Origin: Hyaloraphidium curvatum
Taxonomy: Eukaryota > Monoblepharomycota > Hyaloraphidiomycetes > Hyaloraphidiales > Hyaloraphidiaceae
Direction of reading: 5' to 3'
Length of the DNA: 64,000 nucleotides
Assembly: GCA_025558095.1 (NCBI GenBank)
Contig: JAIVFI010000045.1
Coordinates: forward strand, 62,001-126,000
Positions 27,401 through 36,163 of the stretch are shown here, piece after piece. How positions within the stretch are numbered: the first letter of the stretch is position 1; every line of letters begins with the position of its first letter. Both the position numbers and the translations under genes were made by a program. The notes below the pieces were generated by a model. That model saw only the letters and a list, made by a program, of their open reading frames with translations. It searched no databases and was not told where the DNA came from.

Positions 27401-27689
27401 AGTGTTTCTTTTGGCTGAAGCTCGCGATGCCTCATTTGTCGTGTCAGGCAAACGAAGCCCGTAAGGGTCAGCAAGCTCATCGTCGACGGCACAATCGAGG
27501 ATCGGATCGTTCAGGTTGGCTTGCCCTCTGCCTGCCACAGCAGTTCTTTGTTGATCGCGGCCGCAGCTCCAGGAAAAGAAGCGCGAGCTGATCAAGGGCG
27601 TCATCGGCGAAGGAGGCGTGGCGGGCGGGGACAGGCTGACCTGGGAGCAGCTGCGGTTCCTGTTCCAGCCCTCGCGCAGGGCCGAGTGA
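24417..27689 (+). CDS. SNF2-family DNA translocase with SIM-like motifs
   Basis: Five exons, 24417-27087, 27141-27218, 27274-27397, 27448-27514, 27567-27689, give 1020 aa. The first 450 residues are disordered and acidic. Two copies of LEDL[IL]FPPTP and two of DSDSDD occur there, as do [10 protein letters not shown] and [11 protein letters not shown], both good SUMO-interaction-type motifs. The helicase core follows: [35 protein letters not shown] (Walker A), [11 protein letters not shown] (DEAH), [31 protein letters not shown] and [12 protein letters not shown]. The type is that of Rad5/Rad16/Uls1/TTF2 remodellers, but no RING lies between the two halves. It likely moves along DNA using ATP and strips proteins, perhaps sumoylated ones. 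The next gene starts only 24 bp after its stop. Confidence 0.92.
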
Positions 27690-27712
27690 GGCCGGCCATC
27701 CATTTTGTTGCC

Positions 27713-29352
27713 ATGCAGAGTGTTGCTTCTGCCAACCCACCTTCGCAAATGTCCCACGCGCTCTCGCCCGCCGAATGGGCCGCTGTGTTCCCGGCGGACG
27801 CGTCGCCCGGTGGCACGGGTGGCCTCGCGCCGTACGACCCCGCGGCGGAGCTGCGGGCGGCCGAGCCGCTGACGCCGCCGGCGACGCTCGCGCTGCTGCG
27901 GCCAGTGCCGCTGGCGTCTTTTCTGCTGAAAGTGCAGATTGCGGTCGCCGGCCGCGCCGGCGCGCTCATGGGCGCCGTGCTTTCTCTAACGTCGCTGATC
28001 GTCCCGCTGTGGACTCTCCTCCCGATGTGGCTCGCGTGCAACGGCGGCCGTTTCGCGGGGCGAGAGCTCGCCGTGGCCACCGCCTGCGTCGCACTCACCC
28101 ACGTGTGCGGGACGTGGCTGCTCATCGCGACCCCGGGCTTCGTGGACTCTTACCGCGGTCTGCGGGGCAAGGAGACGCTCGGGGACCACGCGTTCGCCGT
28201 CCTGGCCCGCTGGCTCCAGCTGGTTTCCGCTGACTCCCCGACGAGCACTTCTGGGGACGAGGACGGCGCCGGCTACGGCCTGGTGGCGCACCGTCCTGAC
28301 GACCGCGAGTGCACGTGCCCGCGCAAGGGTTGCTCGGGTTCGCTCCCAGCGCAGGCCGCAGTCAGCACACTGATGCTCACGCTCTACATCGTCCTTTATA
28401 TCTCCGCGACATCAGTACTCTCTTCGTATTCCAGCACCGTGTCACTCGCCCGCTGTACGTGGACAACGCTGTGGACCGCAACCCTGGGCGGCGTTTTCTG
28501 TGCGTTCCGATCGATTGACTGTTATCTGGGACTGACGCGATCGAGGTAGACGTTGCCTTTCTGCTACAGTCGGTTTCCTTGGCTGTCAACGCATCGGCAA
28601 CGGCCCCCTCGCTGGGTAGCATGCGCCTGCAGGCCCGGCTGCTCAAGCGAGCCGCACGGATCTGCGTGGACCGCGTCATGGAGCCGTTCCGTGCGGCGGT
28701 GGCGGCTTCTGCAGGCGGCGGACGGGCTGCCGTGCAGGGGCCGGGCACGGCCGTTGGCGGCGTCAAGTCCGTCGACGACACCGAAGAGCGCCTCGCCGCC
28801 GTCGTCGAGCTGTGCGGGCTCCACCGCTCCGCGACTGAGACACTCTCGCAACCCCCGTACCACCTTGCGGCCCCGTACTCTTTCGCGGCCTACGTCGTCT
28901 CGGGGTTGGTCGCGATGCTGGTCGAGATCCTCGCCGCCGGCTGCCTGCCTCTGTCCTCCTACACCAATATCCTCTTCATGATTCTGGGCTCCAACGCCGT
29001 GGACCTCGTGAACCTCGCCGTCTACAACGGCACCCTCACCGGCCTCCTCGACGTGTACGCGCGAGCTGGCGAGGAGGCCCGCACGGTGCTCGCCGTCGGC
29101 GCGGCGATCCCGGGCGCCGCGGGCGCCGCCTTTCGCCACAGCCTGGCGCCGGAGCTCGACGCGGTGGACAAGCTGCTGGCCTCGTTCGCCGAGATCGGAC
29201 GCCACCGGGCGCGGTTCGCTGGGTTCGTTATCACCGGATCGGTCGTCCGGTCCTATTTCACCGCGCTGCTGACGGCGGTGCTGGGTCTGGCGAGCGTGCT
29301 TCACAATTTCGGGGTGCCGTTCACGGCCGAGACGGCGTGTCCGGTGCAGTGA
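27713..29352 (+). CDS. seven-TM membrane protein, paralogue A
   Basis: Two exons, 27713-28545 and 28620-29352 (521 aa); an ATG at 27749 is an alternative start. Seven hydrophobic segments can be counted: around GAVLSLTSLIVPLWTLLPMW, VATACVALTHVCGTWLLIA, STLMLTLYIVLYISATSVL, TTLWTATLGGVFCAF, AAYVVSGLVAMLVEILAAG, YTNILFMILGSNAVDLVNL and TALLTAVLGLASVLHNFG. The N-terminal 80 residues and two loops (TM4-5, TM6-7) are long and soluble. The TM2-3 loop has ECTCPRKGCSGSLP. Paralogue B at 30.8 kb shares the AEWxAVxP start, this C-x-C-x4-C motif and all seven segments. I cannot name the family; a receptor-like role (compare fungal gustatory-receptor-like 7TM proteins) is a guess. Confidence 0.75.
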
Positions 29353-29524
29353 CTTTTTCGAGCGCCGTCGGAGGAGACGCCGCAGTGACCTGATCTGTGA
29401 CTGCTTTGGGGAGAAGAAGACTGGTAGGCGTGATCTACTGCGATCCGCCATGCTACGAACATTCGCTTCGATCCAACCATCCGTTACTCTTCCGGTCCCC
29501 CGCAACTTGCCGGCATCCCACCGG

Positions 29525-30292
29525 TCACAGCTTCGAGAAGTCCGCCTGCCGCTTCTCGCGGAACGCCGCCAGCGCCTCCAGGTTGGCCGGCCCGAGGCGG
29601 AGCTTGGCCAGCCCCTCGTTCTCCCTCCTGTTGGCGAGGTGCATGGCTTCCCTGTGTGGCCCCACGAGCAGCTCCTTGGTCTGCAGCAGGGACGCCAGCG
29701 GCAGGCGGGCCAGGTCGCGTGCGTAGGCCAGGACGCGCTCGAGGAAGCCGTCGCCGTCCGGGAGCACGTCCAGCACGAGCTTGTCGGCCTTGCACTGCGC
29801 CGCCGACCACCACTCGGCGCCAAGCAGGAAGCGTGAGGCGGCCTGGGGCCCCATGATTCGCGGGAATGTGTAGGTACTCGCCCCTTCGGCGGTCAGGCCG
29901 AGGGTGGAGAACGGGCACCGGAGCCGGGCGCTCTCGGCCATGAACGCCGCGTCCGCGAGCCCGAGCATGGTCGCGCCCCATCCGACGCCGATGCCATTGA
30001 CGGCGAGAATCAACGGCTTGGGAAAATCGATGCAGACGTCCACAAGGCCCGGGAAGCCGTACTTGTAGGTGCGGCCCGACGGGCCCTTGGCCATGGATCC
30101 CAAATCGGCGCCGGCGGAAAAGGCCCGGCCGGATCCGGTGATCACGACGACCTTTGTCGCCGGGTCGTCGCGCGCCTCGATCATGCGCTCGGCTTGCAGC
30201 TCGAACTGGTCGGGATCAAAGGCGTTGAGGACGTTGGGCCGGTCCAGGGTGAGCAGGCGGACGCCGCCGTCGAGGAGGACGGACTGGATCAT
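29525..30292 (-). CDS. peroxisomal enoyl-CoA isomerase/hydratase (ECI2-like)
   Basis: Single exon, 255 aa from ATG 30292. Crotonase fold: GSGRAFSAGADLGSM forms the first oxyanion-hole loop and NGIGVGWGATMLGLADAAF the second. CPFSTLGLTAEGASTYTFPRIMG matches the region of peroxisomal delta3,delta2-enoyl-CoA isomerases (ECI2/Dci1), with Glu as probable base, rather than classical hydratases with two Glu. The C-terminus is Ser-Lys-Leu, the canonical PTS1, so it acts in peroxisomes, shifting double bonds during beta-oxidation of unsaturated fatty acids. An upstream in-frame ATG (30433 or 30421) would add a basic extension, but the SKL end argues against mitochondrial import. It lies between the two 7TM paralogues on the other strand. 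Confidence 0.9.
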   Translation of the reverse strand: MIQSVLLDGGVRLLTLDRPNVLNAFDPDQFELQAERMIEARDDPATKVVVITGSGRAFSAGADLGSMAKGPSGRTYKYGFPGLVDVCIDFPKPLILAVNGIGVGWGATMLGLADAAFMAESARLRCPFSTLGLTAEGASTYTFPRIMGPQAASRFLLGAEWWSAAQCKADKLVLDVLPDGDGFLERVLAYARDLARLPLASLLQTKELLVGPHREAMHLANRRENEGLAKLRLGPANLEALAAFREKRQADFSKL

Positions 30293-30797
30293 GTCCGGTT
30301 GTGGCGATTGGGCGCGATCCGAGGGGAAAGACGCGTAGGAGTCGGCGACTCGTCCGTTGGATCGGGCCGGCAGTCGGCGGCGGGTGTTGCGGAGGACGGA
30401 CTTGCCACTCGGCAAGTTCATCCCCCCCCACATCGCTGGCTCACTTTAGTAACATGTCAGCTTTTTCGGCTCCGGGGTCATCAAGGAGCGTTCGAGCCAG
30501 GGATCAGCAATCCGTCGACGCACTTGATGCGCCGTGGGAACGGCAGGGCAGCTGGCAGGCATCCTTCTTTGGGTGACATCAGCGACATCTTCGCTCGAAA
30601 GCAAGCAGGCCGTGATCGCAGATATCACTGCAGCTACGTACGCCTATCCGCGGAGGCCCCGGTCGTTTCCGTATGCACCGCCCGCCAACTCCTCACTCCG
30701 ATCGCGATCAAATACGGACCTTCGACACCGCTGCCAGCTCCTAGTCCCCCGGAGCGCCTCGCTTGCACCCCCTTTTCCGACTTTCTGGCTCCTAATC
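30293..30797 (+). promoter_or_regulatory. intergenic between divergent ECI-like and 7TM genes
   Basis: About 500 bp separating two divergent start codons; no supported coding frame. Composition is A/T-richer from 30430 on. Individual binding sites cannot be assigned. Confidence 0.4.
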
Positions 30798-32302
30798 ATG
30801 GAAGACGAAGTCAAGCTCGACGTTGAGCCGCGGCCCTTCTCCCTCGGCGGCGCCGAGTGGCTCGCGGTGCTCCCTGCCGCGCCCGACTGGAGCCCCGACC
30901 TCCCCGCCGCGGCCCCAACGGATCCCGCCGCGGAAGCTCGCAAAGAGGCCCCGTTGGATTTCGACGCGTTTGTCGGCGCCCTGGAGCCCAAAGCGGGCGC
31001 CATGGCCGCGTCGGTGCGGCTGCAGGTGCATCTCGACCCGTGGGGCCGGCGGGCGCTGCTCCGCTCGGTGGCGGTATATCTGGGCATCGTCGGCATCACG
31101 GTCGTGTTTTGTGTCTTCGGTGCCGGCTACTACGGGGCGGCCCAGCTCGCGGCCGGGGCCGTGTCGAACCTCGGGCAGGTCTTTGCCGGCAGCCTTGGAG
31201 TCGCGCTTTTTGCCGCCTACCGGTCCTCTCTACAGGCGGTGGGGGACCGCGGGCGCGGAAAGCAGCTCAAAGCAATTGTCGACTTCTCTCATCACGGCGC
31301 GGCCGGGTTGGCACGTTGGCTGCAGGTGGCGTCGGCGCCAGCGGGTTCCCTGCTCGAACACGAACCTAACGACAGCCTGTGCCCGTGCAGCGCACCATCG
31401 TGCGCCGGCAACCTCCCGGGTTTGGCTGGCGTGGCTCGCTTCGCCGAGTCCTTCTTCAAGTTCACCATCTTTCTGCTCTATACCGCGCTGGCGGTTGCAG
31501 CTGTGGCCATCTTCCCCCCATTCTCCTCGCGAATCTGGGCAACAGTGTGGGCGGCGACCATCCTGGCCTTGTTCTGCACCGCAGCCTTTGCCTTCGGCGT
31601 CCCGGTCTCGTTCGTGCGCTTCTCCACCAACCTCCCGCTCCTCCAGCTGTCGCGGAGGGTCAACGTCGCGCAATGAGGCTGGCCCTCGCGCCGATGGTGC
31701 AGCGGTACCGCGACGCCGTGGACTCGGGAAAGTGGTCCGGCGCCGAGAAGCCGGAACGCGCATCATACATGCTGTTGCACCGCCTCCTGTCCTGTTCGTG
31801 GCGGAACAGCATCAGGACCTTCAGCACCTCCTCCCCCATGTTGCTCCCCGTCTCCACCGCCATCGCCTGCGGCCTCGTCAACATGGCCGCCGGGTCCTGC
31901 CTGCCCGCCCTGTACCCGGCCTACCTCGCCTACATCTTCGTCGCCACGCTCATCTTTGACCTGATTCACGTCGCGGCCAGCAACGCCCAGATCACCGGCA
32001 TCCGCTCGCTGTACCTCGACGCGGCACAGGAGCTCGCCGCGCTCAGGCGTGAGCTCACCTCGTGCGCCTCGTCGCCACCGGACTCCGCCCTCCTTGCCGC
32101 CATCGAGGCCGACTCTGCCGTGCTCGCGGGCTACATCGACACGGACAGGTACAGGGCTAGGTTCCTGGGGTTCGTAGTTACCTTCGGTACCGTGCGCACG
32201 CTGATCGTCACGGCGCTCACCCTTGTGCTCGGGCTGTGGAGCGTGTTCAGGAACCTGGGAATCGTGCTCACGGGGGAGCTCGCGTGCCCGCCGCGGGCGT
32301 GA
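30798..32302 (+). CDS. seven-TM membrane protein, paralogue B
   Basis: ATG at 30798; exon 1 to about 31613 and exon 2 from 31658 (486 aa). The proposed 44-nt intron (GTGCGC...GCGGAG) keeps frame but is short and its acceptor is weak, so the join could lie a few codons away. Seven hydrophobic segments: AVYLGIVGITVVFCVFGAG, NLGQVFAGSLGVALFAAY, FTIFLLYTALAVAAVAIF, IWATVWAATILALFCTAA, VSTAIACGLVNMAAGSCL, YIFVATLIFDLIHVAAS and TLIVTALTLVLGLWSVFRNL. Shared with paralogue A: GAEWLAVLP near the start, ARWLQ before the Cys loop, LCPCSAPSCAGNLP, and DRYRARFLGFVVTFGTVRT before TM7. Overall identity is modest, so the duplication is older than that of the zinc-cluster factors. Function unknown. Confidence 0.72.
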
Positions 32303-32484
32303 TGGGCGGGGTGACCAACTGCCGTTGGAGTCGAGTTCGAGACAAGATTAGTTCCTGTAGCGCGTCCTCGCGCGGTGTGAGCCGATCAGTGATCGTCAAC
32401 GGTGCGAATCCAACGTCAACACCGACGAAGGCACCCCGCGAATCCCGCCGTCTGCCGCTCCTCCTCCACGCCTCCGCACCCAGC

Positions 32485-33303
32485 ATGCGCGCTTTGGACC
32501 TCGCCGACGTCGCCGCGGTGCGCGAGGCCCGCACCGCCCGCGCCTCGCGCCGCCCTCCCCCGTCGTTCCCCGCCAAGCCCCCGCCGCTACCGACCCCGCC
32601 GCCCGAGACCCCGCCCGCGGACGCTCAGCGAAACCTTCTACTCGCCCTTTTCCCAGAGCTGGCGACCGAAACTGTGGCCGCGGGCGAAAAGGGTGCCGCG
32701 ATCGGCCACGCCGCGCTGCCCACCGGCCTTCGCACCCCGCAGCAACTGGACATCTCCTCCCCAATCTCCCCGATCTCCGCGGACTCCGCCGCGCTCTCTC
32801 TTTCCGCTCGCGACGTCTACGGACCCGCGGCGTCGGACGTCACCCCGGCTTCGAGCCTCCCTTACCAATCGACTCTTTCACACAACGCCATCCCCGCCCC
32901 CACCCACCTCACCCCGTCGAAATCCCCCCACCCGTGCCTCCACCTCGACTGCTCCATCATCCATGCCTGCTTCGGCCTCCCCAACCAGGTTCCCATCGCC
33001 TGCGCGCAGCACCGCACCCCGGCCATGCACAACCTCACGGGCCGCGGCCGCCCCCGGAAATCGCCCCACCCGTCGCGCTCGCCGGAGCGCGTTTTCGAAA
33101 ACGGGAAGGAGAAGGAGGCGCCGCGCGGTCGGTGCGGGGTGTGCGGGCGCAAGGGGGTGTTCGGTTCCTCGGACGGGGGGGAGAGGCGGTGCGCGGCGCA
33201 CAAGACCAAGGGGATGGGAAGAGCAGGGGCGGCGAAGGCGGGAAAGGTGGCTAAGGGTGAAGGGAAGGCGACGAGGCGGTCCGCGAGGGTGATCAGTGCG
33301 TGA
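32485..33303 (+). CDS. AT-hook protein with two EsV-1-7-like Cys-His repeats
   Basis: Single exon of 272 aa. Residues 1-150 are Pro/Ser/Ala-rich and disordered. At 151-176 lies C-x4-C-x16-C-x2-H (CLHLDCSIIHACFG, CAQHRTPAM), exactly the spacing of the EsV-1-7 repeat. A second, slightly deviating unit spans 217-239: CGVCGRKGVFG with CAAHKTKGM, C-x2-C-x15-C-x2-H and the usual GM after the His. Between them is an AT-hook-like GRGRPRKSP (about 186-194). The tail is Lys/Arg-rich. EsV-1-7 proteins are known from brown algae (IMMEDIATE UPRIGHT), some other algae, oomycetes and large DNA viruses. A chromatin or DNA-binding role is inferred from the AT-hook and basic tail. No start ambiguity is evident. 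Confidence 0.75.
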   Translation: MRALDLADVAAVREARTARASRRPPPSFPAKPPPLPTPPPETPPADAQRNLLLALFPELATETVAAGEKGAAIGHAALPTGLRTPQQLDISSPISPISADSAALSLSARDVYGPAASDVTPASSLPYQSTLSHNAIPAPTHLTPSKSPHPCLHLDCSIIHACFGLPNQVPIACAQHRTPAMHNLTGRGRPRKSPHPSRSPERVFENGKEKEAPRGRCGVCGRKGVFGSSDGGERRCAAHKTKGMGRAGAAKAGKVAKGEGKATRRSARVISA

Positions 33304-33714: not shown

Positions 33715-36163
33715 ATGTTTTCCTCTCCGCGAGCCCTTCCGCCGGGTCGCGCGACGCTCCGCGACCTCATCGCGGCGCTCTGCGCTGTGGCGCTCCTCCC
33801 CCTCGCGCACGGCGCTCCCGTCGCCATCACCGTAAACAAGACGTTCCGGCTCCGTTCGTACATCCGCAACAACCAGGGCATGAACCTCTGCGTCGACGTG
33901 CCGACCGTGAGCCCCCTCCCGAGCTCCAAAGGTGGCGGCTGACCTGGTCGCAGACGGTGGACCGTGCCCAGCTCATCGTCCAGGAATGCGCCTCCACCAA
34001 CTCCCAGCTCTTCTACATGTCCGTCAACCAGCAGGTCGTCCATTTCCCCTCGGGGCAGTGCGTCGACGTCGGCACGGGCCTGATCCTCGGCGAGGGCCGC
34101 GACCGGTCGGACCCGGGCAACTCGGTGCAGCTGTACCGGTGCACGGGGCTCGCGAACCAGCAGTGGGTGGTCGACAGCACAGGCAAAATTGCGTCGCTGG
34201 CGCCGCCCGGCGGGTGCATCGACCTCGCGGGGGGCACGGACTACGCGTTCCCGGGGCGGAACATCCAGACGTGGACGTGCAACTCCACGTTCGACGCGCA
34301 GAACGGGAATCAGGTGGGACGAAGCTTTTCTGCCTTCTCAGTGCGTAGAATCTGATCATGCTGGTCCTGGCAGGCTCGGCTTTGGTACATTGATTACTCG
34401 GATGCGTCACCGAGCACGCTGAGCACAGGAGCCATCGTCGGCATCGTAATCGGATCTCTTGCGGCCCTTGCTCTGATTGCCGGCGGCATACTCTGGCTTG
34501 TCATGAGCAAGCGCAGGGGAAAAGCCGCGCCGGATGTTTCTGCCGAACCCATCAGCGAGGAGAAGCCCGCCAAGGCCGCACCGGTGCTGCAGCAGCAAGT
34601 GGAAGCCAACAGCCCCGCCGCTCAAAAGGATCAGAATCCTCGTCAACTGCCCGAGCAGAGCACCGCACAGCCCAGCGCCATCTTTTCCATGTTCGGCGGG
34701 GACCTGAGACGCGGCGACAAGGCCGTGGACGTCTTCGCCCTCGCGCAGGCCACCGACAACCACTCCCCCGCCAGCGGCACCGAGGTGCCTCTGCGGATCG
34801 GCGACGCGGTCTTCGTGGAACGGGCCTTCGCCAACGGGTGGGCCTCGGGGACCAACCGGACCCGAGGGGGGCAGGGCTTCTTCCCGGCCGACTTTGTGCA
34901 GATCGTCCCCGAACGGGTCGGCTCCCTCGTCGAAGCGGCGCAGGCTCCGCCGCCGAACGAGGTGCATGCATCACCTGCCCCATTGCCTGCCGTGCTTTAC
35001 GCAGCGGAGCGGGCCTCGCCGTACGCCGATCCCAGGATCTCCCCGATCGGCCTCCCACCGCCCGCTGACATCCGGGCGTCGCCCGCCTTCGCGCCCCTGT
35101 CAGTATCCCCGACCGCACCCGCCCCGTCGCCGGACACAGCTGGGTTCTCCGTATCCATCCCCAACAACGGCGCCTCCCCGTCGGACGCCACGCCGATCCT
35201 CTCCCCCACCCAACCGCTCCAAGCCACGATGGGGTTCGCCACCGTCCAAGGCATCCCAGTGCAGAGATCAAAGCTCCTCGTGGGATCGGACGATGTCCGC
35301 GTCGACCGCTCGGCGAGGCTCGGCGGGGGCGGGCTCGGGGAGGTGTTCCTCGGCGTGCTGCGGGGGTCTACCAGGGTCGCGGTGAGGCGGCTTCCGGAGC
35401 CGATGGATCGGGAGACGACGGAGGTGTTTGCGAGGGAGGTACAGGGCCAGGAAGGGCTCGTGCAGCGCAACGGTGCGGGCTATTCGGCGATCGCCCGGCG
35501 GGATTGCTGCTGACTGTTGCATCGCCCCCGCTTTAGTCCTCCCGCTCCTCGCCTTCTCCCTCCAACCCCCCATGCTCATCACCGACCACCTGCCCGACGG
35601 CAACCTCCGTAACTTCCTCCTGGAAAGGGGCTGGGACCAGCCCCTGGGCCTCTCCCTCCTGCGCGACGCCGCGGCCGGGACCGCCTACTTGCACGCCGCT
35701 GGCATCGTGCACGGGGCCCTCCGGAGCACCAACGTCCTCGTGGACGGCACGCGGGCGCTGGTGTCCGGGTTCGGCCTGGCGGGCCTGCGGGAGAAGGTCG
35801 GAGGGGGTGCCACGGTCCGATCGGCGGCGCCGGAAGTGCTCGCGGGCGGGGGGGCGAGCAAGGAAGCAGACGCCTATGCGTTTGCGATGATGTGCTACGA
35901 GGTGCTGAGCGATGGCGCTCTGCCGTTCGAGGGCGCGTCGGACGATCTGGTGGGTGCCCAAACGTGCAGACTGCTGAGCCTTGGGGATCCTGATTGCGGA
36001 TGCCTGCCAGATCAAGCACGTCGTTGCCCAGGGCAAGAGGCCGTCGAGGCCGTTCGGCTCTCCGGATGCCTTCTGGGCCCTGGTGGAGAGGTGCTGGGCT
36101 CAGGATCCGAGAGAACGGCCATCTTTCGCGGACATCCGTGACGAGATGGCGCGTTTCTCGTGA
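33715..36163 (+). CDS. receptor-like protein: ricin-B lectin, TM, SH3, pseudokinase
   Basis: Five exons, 33715-33906, 33954-34313, 34374-35472, 35537-35949, 36011-36163, give 738 aa; introns are 47-64 nt. Order: signal peptide (LIAALCAVALLPLAHG); ricin-B lectin domain about 42-184 (NLCVDVPT, GQCVDVGTG, NSVQLYRCTGLANQQWVVD, GGCIDLAGG, IQTWTCN); TM about 204-227 (IVGIVIGSLAALALIAGGIL); SH3 about 302-363 (ALAQATD, GWASGTN, GFFPADFVQIV); kinase fold about 486-735 of tyrosine-kinase-like type (LGGGGLGEVFLG, NVLPLLAF, LITDHLPDGNLRNFL, CWAQDPRERPSFADI). Catalytic residues are replaced: VAVK Lys is Arg (about 522), HRD reads HGA (609-611), DFG reads GFG (628-630). So it should sense glycans outside and signal by binding, not phosphorylation. 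Confidence 0.88.

What the first reader, a model, noticed from the sequence alone, without database searches (positions are those of the whole stretch)
33715..36163. Fungal lectin receptor with SH3 and a triply degenerate kinase domain
One spliced gene encodes signal peptide, ricin-B lectin, one TM helix, SH3 and a tyrosine-kinase-like domain. The VAVK Lys is Arg, HRD is HGA and DFG is GFG, while the fold motifs (Gly loop, NVLPLL, DPRERPSF) are kept. All three key catalytic residues are lost together, so it is very likely a receptor pseudokinase: glycan sensing outside, scaffold signalling inside. Lectin receptor kinases are well known in plants; this combination with SH3 in a fungus is unusual.
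Basis: partly seen in the sequence, partly recalled or inferred. Interest (0 to 1): 0.85.

Follow-up and report, generated by a model that had tools for sequence, protein, structure and literature searches.

The report
Fungal lectin receptor with dead kinase
This fungal gene encodes a cell-surface sugar-binding receptor whose internal kinase has lost all three residues needed for catalysis, and it belongs to a large, modular set of receptor kinases in this fungus, a type of protein that an earlier survey did not find in fungi.

Summary
One five-exon gene (33715-36163, 738 aa) encodes a signal peptide, ricin-B/CBM13-type lectin, single TM helix, SH3 and a TKL-type kinase domain. TM, SH3 and kinase N-lobe lie in one uninterrupted exon, and both kinase introns match intact relatives in position and phase. 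The active site is lost (VAVK to VAVR, HGD to HGA, DFG to GFG), the activation segment is about 8-10 residues shorter, and fold residues are kept. Two corrections matter. First, HGD, not HRD, is the family norm: of 100 aligned relatives in this genome nearly all keep K, D and D, and this is the only one lacking all three. Second, the architecture is not unique: two intact relatives share the order ectodomain-TM-SH3-kinase, others are RCC1-TM-kinase, several are ectodomain-TM-SH3. The larger finding is this modular receptor repertoire; a 72-genome survey reported no receptor-kinase architectures in fungi. Most likely the protein is a glycan-binding co-receptor or scaffold beside active siblings. 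A decoy receptor is the main rival, because the SH3 ligand surface is also partly changed and the kinase domain has drifted in composition. Ligand, partners, expression and inactivity are untested; no orthologue was available.

The parts
33715..36163 (+). whole gene, five exons, 738 aa plus stop
   Evidence: model; canonical GT-AG introns; GC at third codon positions 0.84
33715..33813 (+). signal peptide (about residues 1-33; hydrophobic LIAALCAVALLPLAHG)
   Evidence: read from the translation; inference, no signal-peptide predictor run
33832..34394 (+). ricin-B / CBM13-type beta-trefoil lectin (about residues 40-191), interrupted by introns 33907-33953 and 34314-34373
   Evidence: Pfam PF00652 2.3e-16; PDB matches to CBM13 of arabinofuranosidase and xylanases, best 7e-10; second and third repeats keep CVD/CID, QLY/QTW and NQ motifs; only ricin-B match over cut-off in the genome
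34434..34499 (+). single transmembrane helix IVGIVIGSLAALALIAGGILWL followed by VMSKRRGK
   Evidence: hydropathy 2.54 over 20 residues and basic residues after it
34722..34907 (+). SH3 domain (about residues 301-362); conserved Y/F of the first strand replaced (H at the aligned column)
   Evidence: Pfam SH3_9 7.2e-6, below cut-off; AlphaFold2 model and Foldseek; alignment
35301..36160 (+). TKL-type pseudokinase domain (residues 494-738), interrupted by introns 35473-35536 and 35950-36010
   Evidence: Pfam PF07714 2.4e-38; family alignment
35385..35387 (+). R522 (AGG) in place of the ATP-binding VAVK lysine
35716..35718 (+). A611 (GCC) in place of the catalytic HxD aspartate (family norm HGD)
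35767..35769 (+). G628 (GGG) in place of the DFG aspartate
35770..35835 (+). activation segment about 8-10 residues shorter than in intact relatives; GTPGFVAPE replaced by TVRSAAPE
   Evidence: alignment

Best explanation
A type-I single-pass receptor of a fungus. Shown from sequence: ricin-B/CBM13-type ectodomain, TM, SH3 fold and a kinase fold with the active site lost. Inferred: the ectodomain binds a carbohydrate (cell-wall or environmental polysaccharide); the kinase domain cannot transfer phosphate and instead serves as a protein-binding surface, most likely pairing with catalytically intact sibling receptor kinases (such as those at C8:336 kb and C38:59 kb) that carry the same TM-SH3-kinase order, in the manner of HER3 with EGFR or BIR2/BIR3 with BAK1. 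It belongs to a large modular receptor family in this genome in which ectodomains, SH3 and kinase modules occur in different combinations.
For: Gene model and domains. All three catalytic residues lost while 32 of 34 non-catalytic top-conserved columns are kept. No alternative N-lobe lysine (only K484, before the Gly loop), so a WNK- or POMK-style rescue by a moved lysine is not seen (read from sequence). Open frame, canonical splicing and coding third-position GC kept on a branch of 0.85-1.19 changes per site, which a decayed gene would not keep. Kinase introns at the same position and phase as in intact relatives. Sibling receptors with the same order and intact motifs: L026, L033; ectodomain-TM-SH3 proteins without kinase: L031 (RCC1), L034, L036, L039 (EGF). 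Allosteric pairing of pseudokinase and kinase is a documented mode: HER3:EGFR (PMC10211241); BIR2/BIR3 pseudokinase receptors regulate BAK1 signalling (PMC10317173).
Against: No expression, partner, ligand or activity data. The SH3 has lost an aromatic that all seven aligned relatives keep, so SH3-mediated scaffolding is doubtful. The kinase domain has drifted to GC-rich amino acids (GARP 0.383 against 0.324 +/- 0.040; K/(K+R) 0.17 against 0.38 +/- 0.12) and all four catalytic substitutions raise GC, which fits relaxed constraint on catalysis rather than selection for a new role. No orthologue from another species was available, so purifying selection on the pseudokinase could not be measured.
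Confidence: 0.6

Rival explanations
1. Decoy or sink receptor: the lectin binds the same ligand class as active siblings, but neither SH3 nor kinase relays a signal; it titrates ligand or forms dead-end complexes.
For: Lectin sugar-site motifs look intact, while the kinase catalytic residues and an aromatic of the SH3 ligand surface are both lost; composition of the kinase has drifted.
Against: Fold-critical kinase residues are almost all kept, which a pure decoy would not need; the other SH3/kinase siblings do not carry a detectable ricin-B domain, so a shared ligand is unproven.
Confidence: 0.25
2. Atypical but active kinase using moved catalytic residues, as POMK does.
For: POMK lacks all three motifs yet phosphorylates a sugar (PMC10211241).
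Against: No spare lysine in the Gly loop, beta-2 or beta-3 region, no new aspartate in the catalytic loop, and a shortened activation segment without the GTPG motif.
Confidence: 0.05
3. A gene under relaxed constraint on its way to loss, with no present function.
For: Long branch, drift to GC-rich amino acids, only one copy, catalytic changes all GC-raising.
Against: 738 codons open across five exons with all splice sites, coding-type third positions, and fold residues intact on a long branch.
Confidence: 0.1
4. Gene-model artefact: lectin and kinase parts belong to different genes.
For: No transcript evidence was available.
Against: Exon 3 alone carries the end of the lectin, TM, SH3 and the kinase N-lobe in one open frame; conserved kinase intron positions; same order in L026 and L033.
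Confidence: 0.02

Closest known systems
Plant lectin receptor kinases (L-, G- and C-type LecRKs)
   Same: Extracellular lectin, one TM helix, cytoplasmic kinase domain; non-RD kinases occur among plant immune receptors (EFR is called non-RD in PMC10317173)
   Different: Ricin-B/CBM13 ectodomain instead of legume, bulb or C-type lectin; SH3 between TM and kinase; catalytic triad lost; different lineage
Receptor pseudokinases HER3 (animals) and BIR2/BIR3 (plants)
   Same: Single-pass receptor with ligand-type ectodomain and a pseudokinase that acts through active partners
   Different: Lectin ectodomain and SH3; all three catalytic residues lost; fungal; partner unknown
Intact sibling receptors in the same genome (L026, C8:336 kb; L033, C38:59 kb)
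   Same: Ectodomain-TM-SH3-kinase order, 50-51% kinase identity, same kinase intron positions
   Different: VAVK/HGD/DFG intact; ectodomain not recognised by Pfam; the three kinases do not form one clade (AU p 0.0001), so SH3 was gained or lost more than once
TM-SH3 sensor Sho1 of yeasts
   Same: Membrane protein whose cytoplasmic output module is an SH3 (my knowledge)
   Different: Sho1 has several TM helices and no lectin or kinase domain (my knowledge)

Membership tests
Pseudokinase | absence of one or more of VAIK Lys, HRD Asp, DFG Asp (definition in PMC10211241) | tested here: met
   R522, A611, G628; relatives have K 97, D 97, D 94 of 100
Pseudokinase | no detectable phosphotransfer | not testable with these tools
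   needs biochemistry
TKL / PK_Tyr_Ser-Thr kinase fold | profile match over the curated cut-off and kept fold motifs | tested here: met
   132.4 bits against 23.1; 32 of 34 non-catalytic conserved columns kept
Ricin-B lectin / CBM13 | profile match over cut-off with repeated QxW-type motifs | tested here: met
   60.6 bits against 29; NQQW, SQLF and ARLW motifs; PDB CBM13 matches
Ricin-B lectin / CBM13 | carbohydrate binding | not testable with these tools
   second and third repeats keep Asp, Gln-x-aromatic and Asn-Gln; no ligand data
SH3 domain | SH3 fold | tested here: met
   AlphaFold2 pLDDT 84.6; TM 0.88 to POSH SH3-4; Pfam score 26.2 is below its cut-off of 30
SH3 domain | canonical PxxP-binding aromatic surface | tested here: inconclusive
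   Trp and Pro kept, first-strand Tyr/Phe replaced
Single-pass receptor kinase architecture | signal peptide, ectodomain, one TM, cytoplasmic kinase fold in one protein | tested here: met
   signal peptide by inspection only
Plant lectin receptor kinase family | legume-, bulb- or C-type lectin ectodomain | tested here: not met
   Pfam finds only ricin-B type
Animal-type receptor tyrosine kinase system | SH2 readers of phosphotyrosine in the same genome | tested here: inconclusive
   no SH2 match, but the control genomes were silent too

The most novel reading that the evidence does not exclude
This fungus independently built a large plant- or animal-like receptor-kinase system by shuffling ectodomains (ricin-B, RCC1, EGF, others), a TM helix, SH3 and TKL kinase modules, and it includes a dedicated lectin pseudokinase co-receptor that regulates active siblings.
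Probability: 0.4. Interest if true: 0.82.

Novelty: new variant of a known kind. Interest (0 to 1): 0.64.

Why it matters
[quoted passage not shown] This genome, with fungal hallmarks (chitin synthase 1, 96 Zn2Cys6 matches), shows at least 16 kinases with a TM helix upstream, RCC1 or other ectodomains, and SH3 modules. If confirmed, receptor-kinase signalling with its own pseudokinase branch arose in fungi too, which would make the rules for how such systems and their dead members evolve directly comparable across plants, animals and fungi.

Tried and rejected
An AlphaFold2 model of the L026 ectodomain failed (pLDDT 33), so whether sibling ectodomains are beta-trefoils is unknown; Pfam finds nothing there, and L036 gives only RicinB_lectin_2 at 0.27. 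The spliced kinase domain was not sent to structure prediction because the stated rule admits only proteins read letter for letter from the DNA. The idea that SH3-kinases form one clade was tested and rejected (p 0.0001), with the caution that the window row is long-branched. No orthologue search in other fungi was possible: genome contigs holds only bacteria and archaea. Species not identified: Hyaloraphidium was considered but no nuclear-genome paper was found; IFT57 did not pass its cut-off, which suggests but does not show a non-flagellate fungus.

Full report
OBSERVATION. Pfam finds Ricin_B_lectin (2.3e-16), a sub-threshold SH3_9 (7.2e-6) and PK_Tyr_Ser-Thr (2.4e-38). The weak SH3 call was tested: an AlphaFold2 model of residues 285-372 has mean pLDDT 84.6 and matches POSH SH3-4 at rmsd 1.0 and TM 0.88 by target length. 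Exon 3 (34374-35472) is a single open frame from the last lectin strand through TM and SH3 to the kinase N-lobe, so these parts cannot be separate genes joined by a wrong splice. The lectin is joined by one intron; the sequences on its two sides, GNQ and ARLWYID, together complete the third trefoil repeat.

KINASE. In the same genome (G000, 31.9 Mb, window = C45:62001-126000) PF07714 gives at least 158 matches, counted exon by exon. I aligned 100 kinase loci, the window gene included, with a splice-aware aligner written here. Beta-3 Lys is present in 97, the HxD Asp in 97 and the DFG Asp in 94; a few of the remaining cases look like alignment or gene-fragment problems (L094, L106, L121). The window gene is the only one with all three lost. 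At the 40 best-conserved columns of 95 members it departs at six, four of them catalytic: K522R, D611A, K613R, D628G (P about 0.002, with the catalytic set chosen from general knowledge). The activation segment is about 8-10 residues shorter and the GTPGFVAPE motif has become TVRSAAPE. Gly loop, alpha-C Glu, catalytic-loop Asn, APE, alpha-F Asp and the alpha-I Arg-Pro are kept. The N-lobe has no spare lysine near the pocket. K-to-R, D-to-A, K-to-R and D-to-G all raise GC, and the domain as a whole has drifted to GC-rich residues, so relaxed constraint on catalysis is part of the story.

FAMILY. Kinase introns fall at the same position and phase in the window gene and intact relatives (residue 68 phase 1, and a second one near residue 206-223 phase 0). 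Upstream sequence shows TM helices 78-388 residues before the kinase in at least 16 of the loci, the window gene included; this is a lower bound because many loci were held with only 350 bases upstream. Ectodomains include RCC1 repeats (L013, L014, L015, L020, L045; Pfam checked on L015; the others read by eye). L026 and L033 have the order ectodomain-TM-SH3-kinase with VAVK, HGD and DFG intact; after removal of an in-frame intron the L026 SH3 scores 44 bits. L031 (RCC1-TM-SH3), L034 and L036 (unassigned ectodomain-TM-SH3) and L039 (EGF-TM-SH3) lack a kinase in the stretch read. The three SH3-kinases do not form one clade, which with the above suggests repeated domain shuffling. The window gene carries the only ricin-B match over cut-off in the genome.

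ORGANISM. Chitin_synth_1 (2e-62) and 96 Zn2Cys6 matches support a true fungus. IFT57 did not pass and no SH2 was found (control silent). The species was not identified.

FUNCTION. The lectin matches CBM13 modules of xylanases and an arabinofuranosidase; repeats two and three keep the Asp, Gln-x-aromatic and Asn-Gln pattern of sugar sites (pattern from my knowledge). The best-supported reading is a carbohydrate-binding receptor with a non-catalytic kinase fold acting through partners, as for HER3 and BIR2/BIR3. Steps shown: gene, domains, loss of motifs, sibling repertoire. Steps inferred: surface location, glycan ligand, lack of activity, pairing. The decoy reading is the main rival because the SH3 has also lost a conserved aromatic.

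NOVELTY. Receptor pseudokinases and lectin receptor kinases are known kinds. The ricin-B/SH3/pseudokinase combination in a fungus, and above all the surrounding receptor repertoire, are not described in the papers I could search; Kiss et al. 2019 report no receptor-kinase architectures in fungi (PMC6733946). My literature search covered open-licence papers only, with ten queries.

Noticed in passing
window 32161-33300 (+): Upstream neighbour carries an EsV-1-7 cysteine-rich motif (Pfam 1e-6, over cut-off), a motif I know mainly from brown algae and their viruses; unexpected in a fungus.
   Followed up: partly
window 27419-32299 (+): Two similar pairs of hydrophobic frames without Pfam match, apparently a tandem pair of multi-pass membrane protein genes.
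   Followed up: no
L018 (C30:167291-168010): A second likely pseudokinase: HSN instead of HxD and SFG instead of DFG, lysine kept, next to an intact tandem neighbour (L082); its activation segment is also unusual.
   Followed up: partly
L124, L118, L074, L107: Further relatives with one or two catalytic residues missing or unclear; may be pseudokinases or model errors.
   Followed up: no
L013, L014, L015, L020, L031, L045: RCC1-repeat ectodomains on single-pass membrane proteins, with kinase or SH3 tails; RCC1 propellers as ectodomains are unusual.
   Followed up: partly
L039 (C31:74.9 kb) and L035 (C4:627.9 kb): EGF-repeat-TM-SH3 and another TM-SH3 protein with a juxtamembrane stretch before the SH3 (F..G......VPVK.FGVA) resembling the window gene's.
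   Followed up: partly
L094, L106 (C48): Near copies of L051/L052 with damage around the DFG region, pseudogene-like; contigs C48, C52 and C51 look like near duplicates of parts of C30, C1 and C10.
   Followed up: no
L010, L016, L021, L022, L126: Several relatives are ankyrin-repeat kinases without a TM helix in the stretch read, so the HGD-type kinase family extends beyond receptors.
   Followed up: no
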